Below are positions 809 to 7,182 of a stretch of 64,000 nucleotides of DNA, piece by piece. This DNA comes from Roseibacillus persicicus (GTDB taxonomy: Bacteria > Verrucomicrobiota > Verrucomicrobiia > Verrucomicrobiales > Akkermansiaceae), in the NCBI RefSeq assembly GCF_014651675.1, contig NZ_BMXI01000008.1, forward strand, positions 124,001 through 188,000. Direction: 5' to 3'. Numbering within the stretch: the stretch's first letter is position 1; each line of letters begins with the position of its first letter. Under the pieces are notes generated by a model, which saw only the letters and a program-made list of their open reading frames with translations, was not told the DNA's origin and ran no database searches. The translations under genes and the position numbers were made by a program.

Positions 809-1210
809 CTAGCCGAAGGAGAATCCGGGGTCCATGCAGCGGGCCTGCTCGGTTTTCGTCCATGCGGTGATAGTCATTCCGTAGAACAATTTCACTTCAC
901 GGGCGAGGTGGGTGTAGTGCGAAAACCCGAGGAGAGAGACAATTTGATCAGCCCCATAACCCATTCTTAGATAGCGTTGAGCTAAAATAATGCGATGTGT
1001 TCTGAAATATTCTTTCGGCCCAGAACCGGTAGCTTTTTTGATCGCATTCTCCAATTCTTGCACCTGCGCGCCGATCGCGGAGGCGACTGCAGCGACCTTA
1101 AATTGATTTTGTTCAGCTAAAGTCATGATGTCCTGACCGTCGTCAGTCAGCAAACGATGACCCTCGCGAACTAATTTGAGAGAAGCTCTTTTACCTTTTT
1201 TTTCCGCCAT
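809..1210 (-). CDS. AraC-type helix-turn-helix protein
   Basis: A 133-residue probable DNA-binding regulator. The C-terminal two thirds (about residues 30-125) follow the AraC/XylS fold: a first helix-turn-helix around AAVASAIGAQVQELENAIKK, then GSGPKEYFRTHRIILAQRYL linking to a second around QIVSLLGFSHYTHLAREVKLFYGMT. AraC proteins are usually about 280 residues with an N-terminal sensing domain; this one has only a short basic N-terminus, so any signal must come from elsewhere or the protein acts as a stand-alone DNA binder. It is divergent from the PhcB-like operon, and a 17-base palindrome lies between the two, which makes control of that operon or of itself plausible but unproven. Confidence 0.8.
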   Translation of the reverse strand: MAEKKGKRASLKLVREGHRLLTDDGQDIMTLAEQNQFKVAAVASAIGAQVQELENAIKKATGSGPKEYFRTHRIILAQRYLRMGYGADQIVSLLGFSHYTHLAREVKLFYGMTITAWTKTEQARCMDPGFSFG

Positions 1211-1498: not shown

Positions 1499-3031
1499 AT
1501 GTCCACAGACTCACTAGAAAAAAAGCTATCATCGGGTGTCATCAGTTTCCTCACCAGCCGGGGTCAAAGGGTTAAAGCACGAGTCCGGGACCTTCGGGCG
1601 GACTCGCTGGCCTTCGAGCTCTTGAGCGCGGAGAACATCCTGCAGATGTCCGAGGTTCTCCGAGAGGTTGAAATCAAGGTCGGAGAACGCCTGGCCTATC
1701 AGGGCGAGTTGACCGTGACCGGTATCGTGCCCCTTGGTGTAATGGTTGTTTGCGATGCTCGCTTGTCGGGCAACTGGCTCCTCGACAGCTTTGCCACCGA
1801 TGACTTCCTGGCCAATATTGAGGAGAACCTCGAGAATCACACCGTCGAGTGGGCCCGAGACCACGAGATTCGTCCGGTCTTCCGGGCCATGGTGGGCGAT
1901 TTGGAGACCTACCTCACGGGATTGGAAACTTGGTGCGAACAGGTCGAATGTGGAGGCTTGGCCAATCGCAGCGACCGGGAGGCCCGGGAAGAACAAATCC
2001 TGACGCGGGTCGGGCCAATTGTGAGCCGTGAGATTGCTTCCCACTTCGCCGACTACGAGCGGGTGGTGAAGAAACTGGACGCTGACCTGCGGGTTGCTCA
2101 TCGGGCCCACCTCATGAAAACCGTTCACCGCTTCATCCTGCAGTCTCCTTTCAGTTACCGCTGCTTCAAAAAGCCTCTTGGCTACGCGGGTGACTACGGA
2201 ATGGTCAATCTGATGCTGGGGAACCCCTATCAGGGAGCCACTTTGTTCGCCAAGCTGCTGAACAATGCGTTCTTGGAGACCGGGCCCGTTACCGCACACC
2301 AGAACCGAATTCACTACTTGGTGGATACTCTGCGCGAGGTGGCTACCGAGCGGGCGGCAAAAGGTCTGCGAACTCGCGTTCTGAATCTGGGCTGCGGTCC
2401 TGCGCAAGAAATCCGCCGCTTTATCGAAGAAGAAGCTGTTTCCGAGATGTGCGACTTCGAGTTGCTGGACTTCAGCGCCGAGACTCTCCGCCACACCAAG
2501 CGGGAGATTGGGGAAAGTCAGGAAAGAAGCGGTCGCCACATCAATTTCTCGCTCATTCAAGAATCGATCCAGGGCTTCCTGCGCCAGGCGAGTCGAGGAG
2601 AGGAATATGACAAAAACAGCTATGACTTAGTATACTGCGCAGGTCTATTTGATTACCTCCAGCAACGCTTCTGTGCGAAACTGACCAGCGTCCTTACCGA
2701 GCTGATCAAACAGGACGGATTGGTCGTAGTCACCAATGTCTCCAAGCATAACACCATCCCTTCGGTGATGGAGGACTTCTTGGATTGGAGCATTATTGAG
2801 CGAACTGAAGAGGAAATGTTGGCATTAGCGCCCACCGAAAATTTAAGCATACTTAAAGAATTGAAATCGGATGTGACTCGCATTAATCTGTTCCTTGAGC
2901 TGCGCAAGCCTGCCGCTCTGAGAAGTGATGTGGATGCGCCTGAAAAAACTGATGCAGCGACGAACGGTCGATCCAGCCTTTCTGGAACGGTTCGAAGCGG
3001 AGGAAGCCATCTCGCGGGTTCCGAATTATAG
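1499..3031 (+). CDS. PhcB-like SAM-dependent methyltransferase (3-hydroxy fatty acid methyl ester signal synthesis)
   Basis: This is probably a class I SAM-dependent methyltransferase of the family annotated as extracellular factor (3-hydroxypalmitate methyl ester) biosynthesis protein; in Ralstonia, PhcB makes the diffusible 3-OH PAME/MAME quorum signal. Residues 1-90 form a beta-rich PilZ-like domain, a helical middle follows, and the SAM motif VLNLGCGPAQE begins near residue 294, with FELLDFS and DLVYCAGLFDYL further on. I chose the ATG at 1499 because the family-like sequence starts there; an in-frame ATG at 1445 would add 18 residues. The C-terminal tail after LFLELRKP is low in pattern and overlaps the next gene in another frame by about 107 bases. 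Being first of three tightly packed genes for signalling proteins strongly supports a PhcB role, though the substrate is inferred. Confidence 0.8.
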   Translation: MSTDSLEKKLSSGVISFLTSRGQRVKARVRDLRADSLAFELLSAENILQMSEVLREVEIKVGERLAYQGELTVTGIVPLGVMVVCDARLSGNWLLDSFATDDFLANIEENLENHTVEWARDHEIRPVFRAMVGDLETYLTGLETWCEQVECGGLANRSDREAREEQILTRVGPIVSREIASHFADYERVVKKLDADLRVAHRAHLMKTVHRFILQSPFSYRCFKKPLGYAGDYGMVNLMLGNPYQGATLFAKLLNNAFLETGPVTAHQNRIHYLVDTLREVATERAAKGLRTRVLNLGCGPAQEIRRFIEEEAVSEMCDFELLDFSAETLRHTKREIGESQERSGRHINFSLIQESIQGFLRQASRGEEYDKNSYDLVYCAGLFDYLQQRFCAKLTSVLTELIKQDGLVVVTNVSKHNTIPSVMEDFLDWSIIERTEEEMLALAPTENLSILKELKSDVTRINLFLELRKPAALRSDVDAPEKTDAATNGRSSLSGTVRSGGSHLAGSEL

Positions 3032-5648
3032 AATTGCCAGTGGACTCGGGGCCATTTTCATCGCGGCCGGTTCCGTCATGGATCGGTTGGCGTTCCCCGA
3101 GATTTGGCACACTCTCGTCCTGCTACGCGGCGAGTGTGCCTTTACTCTTCTTTTACTCTACTGCCTGCTGGGTACGAAGTGGGGCGAGCGCCGCCACTTG
3201 ATCATCGGCCACTTCATCGAAGGCTCCCTCATTCTCAGCATCATGGCCATGGTGGGTCGCACCGGCGGTGCCTCCTCTCCTTATTATGCCGGCCTCTGTC
3301 TCGTGATGGTCGGGGCCAGTCTTCTGCTGCGGTGGTCCATCATGCATGGTGTGGTCAATGTGGTCTTCTGTTGTGGGGGTTACAGCCTCCTGATTGTTCT
3401 GTTCCCGGTCAATAATGCGATGGAGTCGGGCAGCCATCTGGCGGTCCATACCTTCTTTCTCTACGTCACGGGCTTTTTCACCGCTGCGGGAACCTACTTT
3501 CTCTATGAGCTCCGGCTGAACGAATTCCGCCTTCGGGAGGAACTGACAGCCGAGCGAAAACGCTTGGAAAAGAGCCACCAGAAGCTCAAGGAACTCGACG
3601 AGAGCAAGACCAATTTCTTTGCCAACGTCAGTCACGAGCTCCGGACCCCCCTCACTCTCATTCTCGGTCCTATCGAGCAACTCGCGTCCTACGCCCCAGT
3701 GCGCGACAATCCCAAGCTCAATACTTTGGTTCAATCGATGGAAGAAAATGGCTTCCGTCTTCTTCGCCTCATCAACGAGCTGCTAGACATCATTCGATTG
3801 GATGGAGGGCAATATGGAGTCCGGACCGAACTCACGCAGATCGATGATCTGATGGGTTCCATCTACCGATCACTTGTCCCCACCGCCGAGCAGAAAGGAC
3901 TGAATCTGGAACTCCATCTGGAAAATGCTCCAAAAGGGACCTTCCAGATCGATCGGATGAAGTTCGAGAAAGTCCTCATCAATCTGGCGACCAACGCTAT
4001 CAAATTCACCCAACCGGGAGGCACCGTCAAACTCATCGCCAGAGAGACCAAAGGCCGTGAGGTGGAGTTCGAAATCGCGGATACAGGCGCGGGAATGTCT
4101 GATGAGGAGAAAGAAAACGTCTTCCGCCGCTTCTGGCAGGCGGATGCCAGTTCCAAACGCAGACATCGGGGGGCTGGAATCGGTCTTTCTCTAGTGAAGG
4201 GACTCGTCGACCTGCTGGAGGGAACGATTCAGGTCAGCAGCGAAATGGATGAAGGGACGACCTTTACGGTGAAGCTTCCACTCGGTCCATCCACCCAAAC
4301 CAGCTCCATTGCCCTCGACGACGACGACCTCGACCCCATCGAGGAGCTGAACCGCAAGGCCCAGTTCGGCGGGCTCATCGTGGAGGCGAACGCCATGCCA
4401 GTGGTCGATCCTCTCTTCTTCGATGCTCCGGACAACAAGACCCCAGTCATTCTGGTGGCGGAGGACGAGCCCGATGTCCGCCAACTCATCGTCTCCCAGC
4501 TCTCGAGCTACAAGCTCCTCATCGCCACCAACGGCAATCAAGCCATCGAGTTGGCCACCCAGTATCTGCCGGACCTGCTCCTTCTCGACTGGATGATGCC
4601 GGAAAAGGACGGGCTGGAGGTTTGCCAAATCCTCCGCAAGACCACCGCGCTGGAGAGAGCGCCCATCATCATGCTGACCGCCCGGATCGACGAGCGCTCC
4701 AAAATCGAGGCACTCCAAGCGGGGGCAAACGACTTCCTGACCAAGCCCTTTGCCCCCACCGAACTGAAGCTCCGCATCAGCCACCTGCTCAATACGGGTC
4801 GGTTCGAAAAAGAAGTGGTGCAAAAGTCACAGGAGCTGGGAGCCGCCCTCGCCGAACTGAAGGAATCGGAGTCCATGCTGGTGCAGGCCGAAAAGCTCTC
4901 CTCCCTCGGACAGATGAGCGCCGGGATCATTCACGAGATCAACAACCCGCTCAATTACGCCAAGACCAATCTCTATTCCCTGCGCACCTTTGCAAAGCTC
5001 CTTCCGCCCGACGAGAAGGAGGACTTCAACGAAATCACCTCCGATGTGGAAGAGGGCCTCGAAAGAGTCGTTCAAATTGTCAAAGATTTGCGCAGCTTCG
5101 CCGTTAAAGACAAAACCCAATTCAATGACGTCAACCTCGCGGAAGTAGTCGCAGCGAGTTCACGCCTCCTAGGCAACCGCTTGTCCCACGTCCAATTCAA
5201 GTCCGAAGTTCCAGACCACATCCACATCAACGGAAACTCCAACCAGCTCTGCCAAGTTCTGGTCAACTTCATCCAAAACTCACTCGACGCACTCCAGGAG
5301 GCCGAACGCGAGAATGAACAGGGGATGATTCAGGTCGAGGTCACCCAGAGCAGTGAATGGATCTCATTGCACTTGAAAGACAACGGCTGTGGTATTTCTC
5401 TTGAAAATCAGCAGCAGATATTCGATCCCTTCTACAGTAGCAAAGATATTGGCCAAGGAATGGGGCTTGGACTCAGCATCTGCTACCGCATCCTCGATCA
5501 GCACGGAGTAAAAATCGAACTGAAAAGCGATGTCGGAGTGGGAACCCACTTTACCCTCAACTTTCCGATTATCCTGGATGACCGCGAATTTCAAGAGTCT
5601 CTGACTCAACCTCCAACAGAAGAACCGAATACGATCAATCATGAGTGA
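2925..5648 (+). CDS. Membrane hybrid histidine kinase with second kinase module (PhcS-PhcR-like fusion)
   Basis: A 907-residue inner-membrane sensor. Residues 35-215 hold about six hydrophobic spans including the SSPYYAGLCLVMVG motif. A coiled linker leads to the first kinase: H-box ANVSHELRTPLT with His237, N-box LINLATNAIKFT, then DTGAGMS and GAGIGLSLVKGL. A receiver domain follows with phospho-acceptor Asp555 in LLLLDWMMPEKDG and the TKPF lysine. The protein ends with a second kinase: H-box IIHEINNPL with His670, N-box LVNFIQNSLDAL, then DNGCGIS and GQGMGLGLSICYRI. In Ralstonia PhcS is the membrane kinase and PhcR is a receiver plus kinase, so this protein reads as PhcS and PhcR joined. 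It overlaps the methyltransferase gene upstream and the response regulator downstream. The start may be the ATG at 2952 rather than 2925. Confidence 0.88.
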   Translation: MMWMRLKKLMQRRTVDPAFLERFEAEEAISRVPNYRIASGLGAIFIAAGSVMDRLAFPEIWHTLVLLRGECAFTLLLLYCLLGTKWGERRHLIIGHFIEGSLILSIMAMVGRTGGASSPYYAGLCLVMVGASLLLRWSIMHGVVNVVFCCGGYSLLIVLFPVNNAMESGSHLAVHTFFLYVTGFFTAAGTYFLYELRLNEFRLREELTAERKRLEKSHQKLKELDESKTNFFANVSHELRTPLTLILGPIEQLASYAPVRDNPKLNTLVQSMEENGFRLLRLINELLDIIRLDGGQYGVRTELTQIDDLMGSIYRSLVPTAEQKGLNLELHLENAPKGTFQIDRMKFEKVLINLATNAIKFTQPGGTVKLIARETKGREVEFEIADTGAGMSDEEKENVFRRFWQADASSKRRHRGAGIGLSLVKGLVDLLEGTIQVSSEMDEGTTFTVKLPLGPSTQTSSIALDDDDLDPIEELNRKAQFGGLIVEANAMPVVDPLFFDAPDNKTPVILVAEDEPDVRQLIVSQLSSYKLLIATNGNQAIELATQYLPDLLLLDWMMPEKDGLEVCQILRKTTALERAPIIMLTARIDERSKIEALQAGANDFLTKPFAPTELKLRISHLLNTGRFEKEVVQKSQELGAALAELKESESMLVQAEKLSSLGQMSAGIIHEINNPLNYAKTNLYSLRTFAKLLPPDEKEDFNEITSDVEEGLERVVQIVKDLRSFAVKDKTQFNDVNLAEVVAASSRLLGNRLSHVQFKSEVPDHIHINGNSNQLCQVLVNFIQNSLDALQEAERENEQGMIQVEVTQSSEWISLHLKDNGCGISLENQQQIFDPFYSSKDIGQGMGLGLSICYRILDQHGVKIELKSDVGVGTHFTLNFPIILDDREFQESLTQPPTEEPNTINHE

Positions 5649-6786
5649 CACCAACGCACTGAACTCAAAGAGCTACTATGTGCTCTTTGTCGATGACGAG
5701 GAGAAGACCCGGAAGGCCTTTACCCGGCTTTTCCAAGACGAATTTAAAATCCTTCTGGCTGGCGATGGCGCGGAAGGCTTCGAGGTCTTTATGGAGAGGC
5801 AAGATGAGATCGGCGTCATCATCACGGACCAAAAGATGCCGCGGGAAACAGGGGTGCAGTTCTTGGCGAAGGTGGCGGCGGTTGACGAAGATGTCGTCCG
5901 TATTCTCTCCACAGCCTATGCGGAACTGGATGCAGCGGTCGCCGGGGTCAACGAAGGAGGCATCTACCGTTATGTCACCAAGCCTTGGGATGTTCCTGAA
6001 CTGGAGATCACCCTGCGCCGGGCAATGGAACTCTTTTCCCTCCGCAAGCAACAGGCCTCCCACGACAGTACCGGCAGCCTTGATGTCGATTCTGTTTTGC
6101 TCAATCAACGCGTCACCGGCTTGGCCTTTTCCCAAGCGGCTGCCTCCGAAACCGATCGCCCGCACGGGATCCGGGCTGGAGCCATCTTCCTGGCAATGCT
6201 GGGTTGGCAAGGCTTGGGTGAGGGCGGCGAAGTCGATTGGGTGGCCCGCTACCAAACCCAAAGCAACTTCTTCCGCACGGTCTTCCGCGAAAGTGCTGCC
6301 ACCTTGGAGACCCAGGGCACCCTCGATTGGTCGCGCCCCGCGCCTCCATCAGCTGCCATTCAGGCGGCTGCCATCGGGTGCGACGGCATCACTCTCAAGG
6401 CCGGCGGCAGCGATTCTACTGTTTGGCCGGGCCCGGCGCCCCTCCTCGCCGAAGCTCTGCGCCCTCTCATGGTAGCCTTTTCGAACATGCTTTCCCAGCT
6501 GCCTGGCGGAAGCTGTGAGATCAGAACCAACTTCAATACCGTCGATTTCCACTTCTCAGGATTCCCGTTGAAGAACGGTCAGTTGATCCTCGCCACCGAC
6601 CCCGATAGCACGCCCGTCCTCGCTTCGCTCTTGCAAGCTTGTCTCCAGGTTGAAGCCTCCGGCGGACATCTGAGCATTTTGCGTTCAGGGGAAGGGCTCG
6701 CAATCCGGCTCGGATTCGAAGAGAACTCTACCGAAGAAGAAGTGGGCTTGGCTGCCGTCAAGCAGTTGACCGCCATGGGGCAGTAA
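5641..6786 (+). CDS. Response regulator, PhcQ-like
   Basis: A 381-residue response regulator. Residues 10-130 are a receiver domain with the acidic pair in LFVDDEE, the acceptor Asp in VIITDQKMPRETG, and the conserved lysine in GIYRYVTKPWDVPEL. The 240-residue output part has no helix-turn-helix, GGDEF or HD-GYP motif that I can see; late segments such as GSCEIRTNFNTVDFHFSG and GLAIRLGF vaguely resemble a degenerate ATPase fold. This layout (receiver with YRYVTKPW and an unusual output) is that of PhcQ in the Ralstonia phc operon. The start codon overlaps the end of the kinase gene by 8 bases, so translation is probably coupled. Output and target are unknown; no LysR-type PhcA is in the window. 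Confidence 0.82.
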   Translation: MSDTNALNSKSYYVLFVDDEEKTRKAFTRLFQDEFKILLAGDGAEGFEVFMERQDEIGVIITDQKMPRETGVQFLAKVAAVDEDVVRILSTAYAELDAAVAGVNEGGIYRYVTKPWDVPELEITLRRAMELFSLRKQQASHDSTGSLDVDSVLLNQRVTGLAFSQAAASETDRPHGIRAGAIFLAMLGWQGLGEGGEVDWVARYQTQSNFFRTVFRESAATLETQGTLDWSRPAPPSAAIQAAAIGCDGITLKAGGSDSTVWPGPAPLLAEALRPLMVAFSNMLSQLPGGSCEIRTNFNTVDFHFSGFPLKNGQLILATDPDSTPVLASLLQACLQVEASGGHLSILRSGEGLAIRLGFEENSTEEEVGLAAVKQLTAMGQ

Positions 6787-6801: not shown

Positions 6802-7182
6802 ATGATCAAGTTCGTCTACTGCGTGCGCAAAAAGGAAGGCATCTCCGACGAGGAATTCTACCGTTACTGGAAGGAGAATCATGGCCCCTTGGTGCGCAGC
6901 TTCGCCGAGACCATGGGCTCTCTGAAGTATGTCCAAAGCCACACTATCGACACCGTCCTCAATGAGGTTGGCCGCGAGGTGCGGGGCATGCGACAAGCCT
7001 ATGACGGCATCACCGAAGTCTGGTTCGAGTCAGCGGAGGCACTCGCCAACATGCTGCTGACCGAGGAAGGCAAGAAGGCGAACAAAACTCTCATCGAGGA
7101 TGAAGCGACCTTCTGCGAACTGCGCGAGTGTTCGGTCTTTCTCACCGAGGAGCACGTCATCTTCGACCGCACGGAATCCTAG
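6802..7182 (+). CDS. EthD domain-containing protein
   Basis: A 126-residue cytosolic protein of the dimeric alpha-beta barrel (EthD) family. Diagnostic are the opening IKFVYCVRKKEGISDEEFYRYW, with the family's KENHGPLV motif just after, and the later YDGITEVWF segment. EthD proteins are small enzymes or accessory proteins, some acting on aromatic or ether substrates; the role here is unknown. It follows the PhcQ-like regulator by only 15 bases on the same strand and may be the last gene of that operon, or lead into recQ 68 bases further on. A link to signal turnover is conceivable, but nothing in the sequence proves it. Confidence 0.85.
   Translation: MIKFVYCVRKKEGISDEEFYRYWKENHGPLVRSFAETMGSLKYVQSHTIDTVLNEVGREVRGMRQAYDGITEVWFESAEALANMLLTEEGKKANKTLIEDEATFCELRECSVFLTEEHVIFDRTES

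What the first reader, a model, noticed from the sequence alone, without database searches (positions are those of the whole stretch)
1499..6786. A PhcBSRQ-like lipid-ester quorum-sensing operon outside Proteobacteria, with PhcS and PhcR fused
Three overlapping genes encode, in phc order, a PhcB-type methyltransferase, a six-span kinase joined to receiver and second kinase, and a PhcQ-like response regulator. In Ralstonia the phcB-phcS-phcR-phcQ operon makes and senses 3-hydroxy fatty acid methyl esters. Finding the same set in a verrucomicrobial window, with the sensor kinase and the receiver-kinase as one chain, would extend this kind of signalling to another phylum. The genes and domains are seen; the signal molecule and function are inferred.
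Basis: partly seen in the sequence, partly recalled or inferred. Interest (0 to 1): 0.78.

Follow-up and report, generated by a model that had tools for sequence, protein, structure and literature searches.

The report
Ralstonia-type lipid signalling operon in Verrucomicrobia
A verrucomicrobial genome carries a relative of the operon with which the plant pathogen Ralstonia makes and senses a fatty-acid methyl ester to gauge its own numbers, and the comparison suggests that the Ralstonia version is a trimmed branch of a wider bacterial signalling family.

Summary
The three genes are there and are homologous to Ralstonia phc genes. The methyltransferase matches a Ralstonia-type PhcB over 453 aa (33%, E 2e-90), and PhcB nests inside its tree. 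The sensor profile finds one place in each of five genomes; in three Burkholderiaceae-type genomes that place is phcS. In 78 of 78 named-genome loci with room the sensor kinase follows the methyltransferase; in 61 of 61 a PhcR/PhcQ-type receiver gene follows. One of 16 other loci (L049) has the methyltransferase alone.

The 'PhcS+PhcR fusion' is not supported. PhcS matches the membrane part and the SECOND kinase of P0002; PhcR's receiver resembles the separate receiver genes, not the one inside P0002. P0002 is PhcS with an extra kinase-receiver cassette, laid out like Leptospira LvrA. Three Verrucomicrobia loci also lack the cassette, so Ralstonia PhcS looks trimmed. P0003 is PhcQ-like; no PhcR lies beside the operon, so this is not a PhcBSRQ operon proper. 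An AraC-type HTH gene sits within 1.5 kb in 43 of 121 loci, a candidate output. Signal chemistry and quorum function are inferred. New variant of a known kind.

The parts
1499..3031 (+). PhcB-type SAM methyltransferase (P0001, 510 aa): N-terminal beta-rich domain (about residues 13-90), helical region, Rossmann methyltransferase
2925..5648 (+). PhcS-type membrane sensor kinase with an internal kinase-receiver cassette (P0002, 907 aa)
2985..3578 (+). PhcS-type membrane sensor region (motif SPYYAGL)
3570..4310 (+). first kinase HK1 (H237), part of the cassette that Ralstonia PhcS lacks
4449..4778 (+). receiver inside the kinase (D555), part of the cassette
4830..5588 (+). second kinase HK2 (H670), the counterpart of the Ralstonia PhcS kinase
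5641..6786 (+). PhcQ-like response regulator (P0003, 381 aa): receiver (D63) plus a decayed kinase-like tail; no DNA-binding domain matched in Pfam
809..1210 (-). divergent AraC-type HTH-only protein (133 aa), linked to the operon in relatives; candidate output regulator
6802..7182 (+). EthD-domain protein, found in the fetched stretch of 21 of 98 loci; role unknown

Best explanation
A cell-cell signalling operon of the wider family to which Ralstonia PhcBSRQ belongs, with a longer receptor. P0001 methylates an acyl substrate, most likely a 3-hydroxy fatty acid, to a diffusible methyl ester (inferred from orthology). The six-span region of P0002 senses it (inferred). HK1 (H237) phosphorylates the internal receiver (D555), which controls HK2 (H670), and HK2 and/or HK1 phosphorylates P0003 at D63 (inferred from Leptospira LvrA/LvrB biochemistry). 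P0003, a PhcQ-type receiver with a decayed kinase tail, acts through protein contacts as PhcQ does on PhcA (inferred). The linked AraC-type HTH protein is a candidate for the DNA-binding output in place of PhcA (inferred from linkage). Shown here: homology of synthase, sensor, second kinase and PhcQ-like regulator to the Phc proteins; the internal cassette; no PhcR-type gene beside the operon; the wide spread of the operon.
For: Methyltransferase: 33% over 453 aa to L190 PhcB, E 2e-90; 35 positions invariant in 45 sequences, 10 Pseudomonadota PhcB included; PhcB nests with Salinisphaera (89) inside clades of 99*. Reference operons L190 and L197 carry the four published Ralstonia anchors exactly (PhcB R22, PhcS L161 and H230, PhcQ R154; positions from passages of PMC6989110, and PMC11960443). 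Profiles built from verrucomicrobial rows only give L190 PhcB 547 bits, PhcS sensor 131, PhcS kinase 247 as HK2 against 61 as HK1, PhcQ receiver 153 against 26. HK2's best match is phcS in 3 of 3 Burkholderiaceae-type genomes, E 1.5e-38, 4.0e-37 and 2.0e-32, the next kinase in each 7.4e-30, 1.5e-29 and 2.3e-29. P0003's best match is phcQ in 2 of 3, second in the third. Sensor profile: 1 place in each of 5 genomes. Synteny 78 of 78 and 61 of 61. The methyltransferase and HK2 trees agree broadly on where PhcB and PhcS attach. P0003's model has LvrB, a receiver-kinase, as first Foldseek match, E 5e-10, 394 alignment columns.
Against: No chemical or functional evidence. PhcR, a part of the Ralstonia operon, is missing beside this one. 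PhcB residue R22, which matters in Ralstonia, is K26 here and H in L034 (read from the alignment). The P0003-LvrB match is poor as a rigid superposition (TM 0.3, rmsd 23); the second look by VIA-align tested the receiver only. The tails of P0003 and PhcQ share no clear sequence similarity. The NCBIfam LvrA model covers P0002 201-881 but scores 284 bits against a cut-off of 1200. The AraC-type gene is near the operon in only 43 of 121 loci. With other receiver-gene kinases left out, support for the HK1/HK2 split fell to 82 and holding PhcS with HK1 was not rejected (p-AU 0.27); with outlying receivers left out, PhcR's receiver fell between the kinase receivers and the PhcQ side (72). L049 has the synthase without the operon.
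Confidence: 0.68

Rival explanations
1. One reading: P0002 is PhcS fused to PhcR (sensor-HK1 = PhcS, receiver-HK2 = PhcR).
For: The order of parts fits, and PhcR aligns collinearly with residues 502-881 of P0002 at 22-23% (E 3e-13 to 8e-13). L044 shows an in-frame stop at the joint. PhcS also aligns with the sensor-HK1 half (P0002 15-452, 23%, E 3e-23). Tests on reduced trees do not reject it.
Against: The PhcS kinase matches residues 626-881 (HK2) at E 9e-45; HK1 and HK2 scores do not overlap for 10 PhcS, nor receiver scores for 10 PhcR. Salinisphaera has the long kinase plus separate PhcR-like and PhcQ-like genes. L057 and L069 have sensor-HK2 with no cassette.
Confidence: 0.06
2. Same family, but the methylated molecule is not a 3-hydroxy fatty acid methyl ester: another lipid, acyl or secondary metabolite, used as a self-signal.
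For: Orthology does not fix the substrate; identity to PhcB is only 33-34%. No solved relative is close: best structural match 3ocj, an uncharacterised Bordetella protein (Z 20.1, 259 aligned, 16% identity). Even within the Ralstonia complex the chain length differs (PMC8578825, introduction).
Against: 35 invariant positions shared with PhcB, and a sensor region kept with the synthase in 78 of 78 loci, suggest a conserved ligand class.
Confidence: 0.25
3. Not cell-cell signalling: the methyltransferase modifies a protein or membrane lipid and the kinase reports on the cell's own envelope state.
For: There are no secretion or density data; a short relative of the methyltransferase on a Pseudanabaena plasmid lies beside an ordinary kinase and receiver; the N-terminal beta-rich domain is unexplained.
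Against: Linkage to a PhcS-type sensor (78 of 78) that is found once per genome in the five genomes tested.
Confidence: 0.15

Closest known systems
PhcBSRQ quorum-sensing operon of Ralstonia and Cupriavidus
   Same: Homologous synthase, PhcS-type sensor region, PhcS-type kinase (HK2), PhcQ-type receiver; same gene order
   Different: Extra HK1-receiver cassette inside PhcS; no PhcR gene beside the operon; linked AraC-type gene; PhcA not identified (6 LysR genes in the genome, none tested for orthology)
LvrA/LvrB relay of Leptospira (PMC5863495 passages; PMC13269768 passages)
   Same: Sensor - kinase - receiver - kinase chain followed by a receiver-kinase partner; LvrB aligns with P0002 residues 519-883 (104 bits) and is the top Foldseek match of P0003
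   Different: LvrA has a PAS sensor and no membrane spans; the word methyltransferase does not occur in the main text of PMC5863495; P0003's kinase tail has decayed; P0002 is far under the NCBIfam LvrA cut-off
Salinisphaera hydrothermalis C41B8 locus (L129/L151)
   Same: Methyltransferase, long kinase with cassette, PhcQ-like gene
   Different: Also keeps a PhcR-like receiver-kinase gene

Membership tests
PhcBSRQ system | PhcB-type methyltransferase, full length | tested here: met
   33% over 453 aa, E 2e-90; tree
PhcBSRQ system | PhcS-type multi-span sensor region | tested here: met
   131 bits on L190 PhcS; one place per genome, phcS in 3 of 3 Burkholderiaceae-type genomes
PhcBSRQ system | PhcS kinase domain | tested here: met
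   HK2:
PhcBSRQ system | PhcR (receiver plus kinase) encoded in the operon | tested here: not met
   no such gene beside the operon and not fused in P0002; the rest of the genome was not tested for one. It is therefore filed as a relative with other gene content, not as a PhcBSRQ operon
PhcBSRQ system | PhcQ-type receiver protein | tested here: met
   receiver only; placing the g2 receivers with PhcR without PhcQ has p-AU 0.041, a test named after seeing the tree; the tails could not be compared
PhcBSRQ system | LysR regulator PhcA | tested here: inconclusive
PhcBSRQ system | makes a 3-hydroxy fatty acid methyl ester that acts as a density signal | not testable with these tools
   needs chemistry
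PhcS-PhcR fusion | HK1 is PhcS-type and the internal receiver is PhcR-type | tested here: not met
   scores and architecture; tests on reduced trees inconclusive
LvrA-type kinase | kinase-receiver-kinase chain | tested here: met
   NCBIfam LvrA 284 bits, under its cut-off of 1200
LvrA-type kinase | PAS sensor, cytoplasmic | tested here: not met
   six hydrophobic stretches, no PAS match at E up to 1

The most novel reading that the evidence does not exclude
Phc quorum sensing is not a Ralstonia invention but a trimmed branch of an old lipid-ester signalling family centred on Verrucomicrobiota and reaching records titled Omnitrophota, Deltaproteobacteria, Pyrinomonadaceae and FCPU426; the original receptor is a two-kinase relay whose inner cassette was lost at least three times, and in the window's family the output is an AraC-type regulator coded beside it. 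It would give Verrucomicrobiota a quorum-sensing system assigned by synthase and receptor together, for which the paper searches listed no precedent.
Probability: 0.5. Interest if true: 0.86.

Novelty: new variant of a known kind. Interest (0 to 1): 0.74.

Why it matters
The Phc system is described as genus-specific to Ralstonia (PMC8578825, introduction), with orthologues in Cupriavidus (PMC2842291, passages) and Paraburkholderia (PMC6989110, passages). Finding the synthase and its receptor together in Verrucomicrobiota and other phyla makes lipid-ester quorum sensing there directly testable in harmless organisms. It gives the Ralstonia receptor an evolutionary history (loss of a kinase-receiver cassette), and it offers an AraC-type candidate for an output that in Ralstonia is coded outside the operon (phcA).

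Tried and rejected
Fusion of PhcS and PhcR: rejected, see rivals. An ancestral split of the kinase in L044: rejected as evidence, since the two halves are in one frame with a single stop between them and I saw no usual start for the second half before it enters the receiver. PilZ identity of the N-terminal domain: it looked PilZ-like to me, but no PilZ match in 42 members (E up to 0.01), and the structure searches did not test that part; left open. Solved relatives of the methyltransferase by sequence: none convincing. PhcA: not found because no sequence was at hand. Tests on reduced domain trees: not decisive, because an unrooted split cannot tell 'with HK1' from 'first branch of HK2'. Exact identity of the reference: start-to-start distances that I worked out from the GMI1000 table in PMC6989110 (1417 and 2523 bases) are not met by L190 (1433 and 2525), so L190 is a Ralstonia-type operon, not GMI1000's own; of the seven loci printed two match all four anchors, the others differ in residue 161 or in the PhcQ numbering, and L198 and L200 also in the PhcS numbering. 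Papers: eight searches; among the rows listed (20, 20, 4, 4, 15, 15, 15 and 10, several of them the top of longer lists) I saw, by title and start of abstract, no paper on a phc operon outside Burkholderiales. Most subscription papers are not held; the Phc review by Kai 2023, seen only in a reference list, was not looked up.
Full report
OBSERVATION. The window (G000:C8:124001-188000) has three overlapping + strand genes at 1499-3031, 2925-5648 and 5641-6786. Pfam sees a bare methyltransferase domain in P0001, kinase-receiver-kinase in P0002 and a receiver in P0003. P0001 has one match in its own genome (itself). Hydropathy shows six hydrophobic stretches at the start of P0002, two of them weak. 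Phospho-residues H237, D555, H670 (P0002) and D63 (P0003) are in place.

REFERENCE OPERONS. No named Ralstonia genome was at hand, so I recognised one by published positions. PMC6989110 (passages) gives mutations in PhcB R22, PhcS L161 and PhcQ R154; PMC11960443 (passages) gives PhcS H230. L190 encodes PhcB 470, PhcS 442, PhcR 368 and PhcQ 335 aa. The Paraburkholderia graminis plasmid L029 has the same order, with PhcR cut to a receiver. In the family of G622 55 of 249 genomes carry the synthase (E up to 1e-60); in a sample of the Salinisphaera genome's phylum 8 of 398 (E up to 1e-30), seven of them with a full-length match; in the window's phylum 17 of 288 (E up to 1e-10). The 10 Pseudomonadota 'Phc' rows used below are L029, L145-L150, L190, L198 and L203; L148-L150 come from genomes whose family is not known.

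THE SYNTHASE. P0001 aligns with L190 PhcB at 33% over 453 aa (E 2e-90); 35 positions are invariant in 45 full-length sequences. Among 54 methyltransferases the 10 Pseudomonadota PhcB form one clade (100*) next to Salinisphaera (89) and then verrucomicrobial sequences (99*, 99*). The 8 short outgroup rows are very divergent and not one clade: one, L028, falls beside L049 on a very long branch. Most of the 80 are titled Verrucomicrobiota or a group of it; others are titled Omnitrophota (L082), Pyrinomonadaceae (L091), Deltaproteobacteria (L102, L115), FCPU426 (L112, L120), plain 'bacterium' (L080) and Salinisphaera (L129). All but Salinisphaera are titled MAG, so labels may err. AlphaFold gives a confident model (pLDDT 85.9); the best solved match is 3ocj, an uncharacterised Bordetella protein (Z 20.1, 259 aligned, rmsd 3.7).

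THE RECEPTOR. Profiles were built from the window and 15 verrucomicrobial loci (15 or 16 rows each) and run on 121 loci (a few are the same contig fetched twice, such as L034/L051, L036/L100 and L129/L151). L190 PhcS reads as sensor (131 bits) plus HK2 (247 bits; 61 as HK1). Pairwise, 10 PhcS kinases score 113-215 bits against 26 HK2 and 32-82 against 26 HK1, without overlap. HK2's best match in each of three Burkholderiaceae-type genomes is phcS. The sensor profile finds a single place in each of five genomes (own, Salinisphaera, three Burkholderiaceae-type), in each the kinase of this operon. So the window's receptor is PhcS with an internal HK1-receiver cassette. Of 62 named-genome loci with 3.5 kb downstream, 58 have the whole chain in one frame (L123 with the sensor match in two pieces), 2 have it interrupted (L076, L080), and 2 (L057, L069) lack the cassette; L073 also shows sensor then HK2 on a cut contig. 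On the methyltransferase tree the cassette's presence needs three changes in 42 scored rows (four rows, L049, L065, L091 and L112, were left out because the chain was absent or cut). Changes cannot tell gain from loss, but the Phc rows and the two Akkermansiaceae-side cases each sit inside groups that have it, which favours loss.

WHY NOT A FUSION. PhcR's receiver scores 62-113 bits against 26 separate receiver genes and 0-53 against 26 kinase-internal receivers (10 PhcR). The full receiver tree (86 rows, several very long branches) puts P0003, PhcQ and PhcR together (100*) apart from the internal receivers, with P0003 on the PhcQ side (84). The full kinase tree puts PhcS inside the HK2 clade (98*). 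Salinisphaera has the long kinase and separate PhcR-like and PhcQ-like genes. Against this: P0002 502-881 does align with PhcR (22-23%, E 3e-13 to 8e-13), and 15-452 with PhcS (23%, E 3e-23); a reduced kinase tree held PhcS with HK2 at 82 only and did not reject PhcS with HK1 (p 0.27); a reduced receiver tree put PhcR between the two receiver groups (72). These unrooted tests cannot separate 'with HK1' from 'first branch of HK2'; the scores can.

THE REGULATOR. As a group the 26 second genes of the non-Pseudomonadota operons score a median of 115 bits to PhcQ and 88 to PhcR, and grouping them with PhcR without PhcQ has p-AU 0.041, a test chosen after seeing the tree. P0003's best match is phcQ in 2 of 3 genomes and second in the third. 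Relatives with longer tails keep kinase-like motifs that P0003 has lost. The model (pLDDT 83.7) has Leptospira LvrB, a receiver-kinase, as first Foldseek match (E 5e-10, 394 alignment columns, but TM 0.3). PhcQ in Ralstonia binds and stabilises PhcA (PMC13320629, abstract), so a non-enzymatic role is plausible here.

OUTPUT. An AraC-type HTH-only gene (809-1210, -; HTH_18 1.2e-12) diverges from the operon. Relatives of it lie within 1.5 kb of the operon in 43 of 121 loci: 30 divergent upstream, 12 downstream on the same strand, 1 downstream opposite (some of the 121 are duplicates, cut contigs or Pseudomonadota). Of these 43, 36 are named-genome loci, all titled Verrucomicrobiota or a group of it and 23 of them Roseibacillus or Akkermansiaceae (titles). 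The genome has six LysR genes; whether one is PhcA is not known. An EthD-domain gene is in the fetched stretch of 21 of 98 loci.

MECHANISM. Likely steps: ester made by P0001 (inferred), sensed by the membrane part (inferred), HK1 to D555, HK2 and D63 of P0003 by analogy with LvrA/LvrB, for which transfer from the first kinase to its own receiver and to LvrB is reported (PMC5863495, passages), then gene control, perhaps through the AraC-type protein (inferred from linkage).

LITERATURE. Phc is called genus-specific in PMC8578825 (abstract and introduction seen); orthologues are reported in Cupriavidus (PMC2842291, passages) and homologues in Paraburkholderia (PMC6989110, abstract and passages). 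A 2026 review (PMC13220807, passages) treats it under Ralstonia. PMC13269768 (passages) calls PhcR a prototypical Rec-HK. Eight searches listed no paper placing a phc operon in Verrucomicrobiota, as far as titles and abstract starts show; PMC12503165 (passages) lists PhcB among synthases surveyed in gut genomes, and its results for PhcB were not in the passages seen. PMC12950752 (passages) only mentions both words.

VERDICT. A real, well-conserved operon of the wider Phc family with a longer receptor and no PhcR; new variant of a known kind; the signal and its role remain to be shown. The odds of the rivals are not exclusive: the first concerns ancestry only, the second shares all but the molecule.

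Noticed in passing
L188, L190, L192 versus L198 and L200: Ralstonia-type operons differ strongly in the second half of PhcB and the sensor half of PhcS while the PhcS kinase, PhcR and PhcQ stay very similar, as if a synthase-plus-sensor block had been exchanged.
   Followed up: partly
L029:7866-12349: A plasmid of Paraburkholderia graminis typed as conjugative carries the phc-type operon with PhcR reduced to a receiver alone.
   Followed up: no
L099, L109: Contigs titled Akkermansia muciniphila carry the methyltransferase (L109 the operon), while none of the 20 small genomes of genus g2 that one search lists has a match (g2 as Akkermansia is my guess); L109 groups with Prosthecobacter. The titles may be wrong.
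   Followed up: no
L044:9044-9046: One in-frame stop separates sensor-HK1 from receiver-HK2, and no PhcQ-type gene was found after it; a broken or unusually split copy.
   Followed up: partly
L077, L080, L082, L084, L113, L120 and others, downstream of the kinase: 18 of 61 loci were counted with two or more receiver genes after the first kinase ORF (in L076 one of them is only the second half of an interrupted kinase), so the regulator part expands in some lineages.
   Followed up: no
L048:2089-4146: In this locus the methyltransferase ORF begins with a receiver domain, a receiver-synthase fusion.
   Followed up: no
L049: A verrucomicrobial relative of the synthase (362 bits) stands without the kinase and receiver genes.
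   Followed up: no
Enterobacter ludwigii plasmids, hits H11 and H12: A stretch annotated as type I polyketide synthase matches the methyltransferase at 29%.
   Followed up: no
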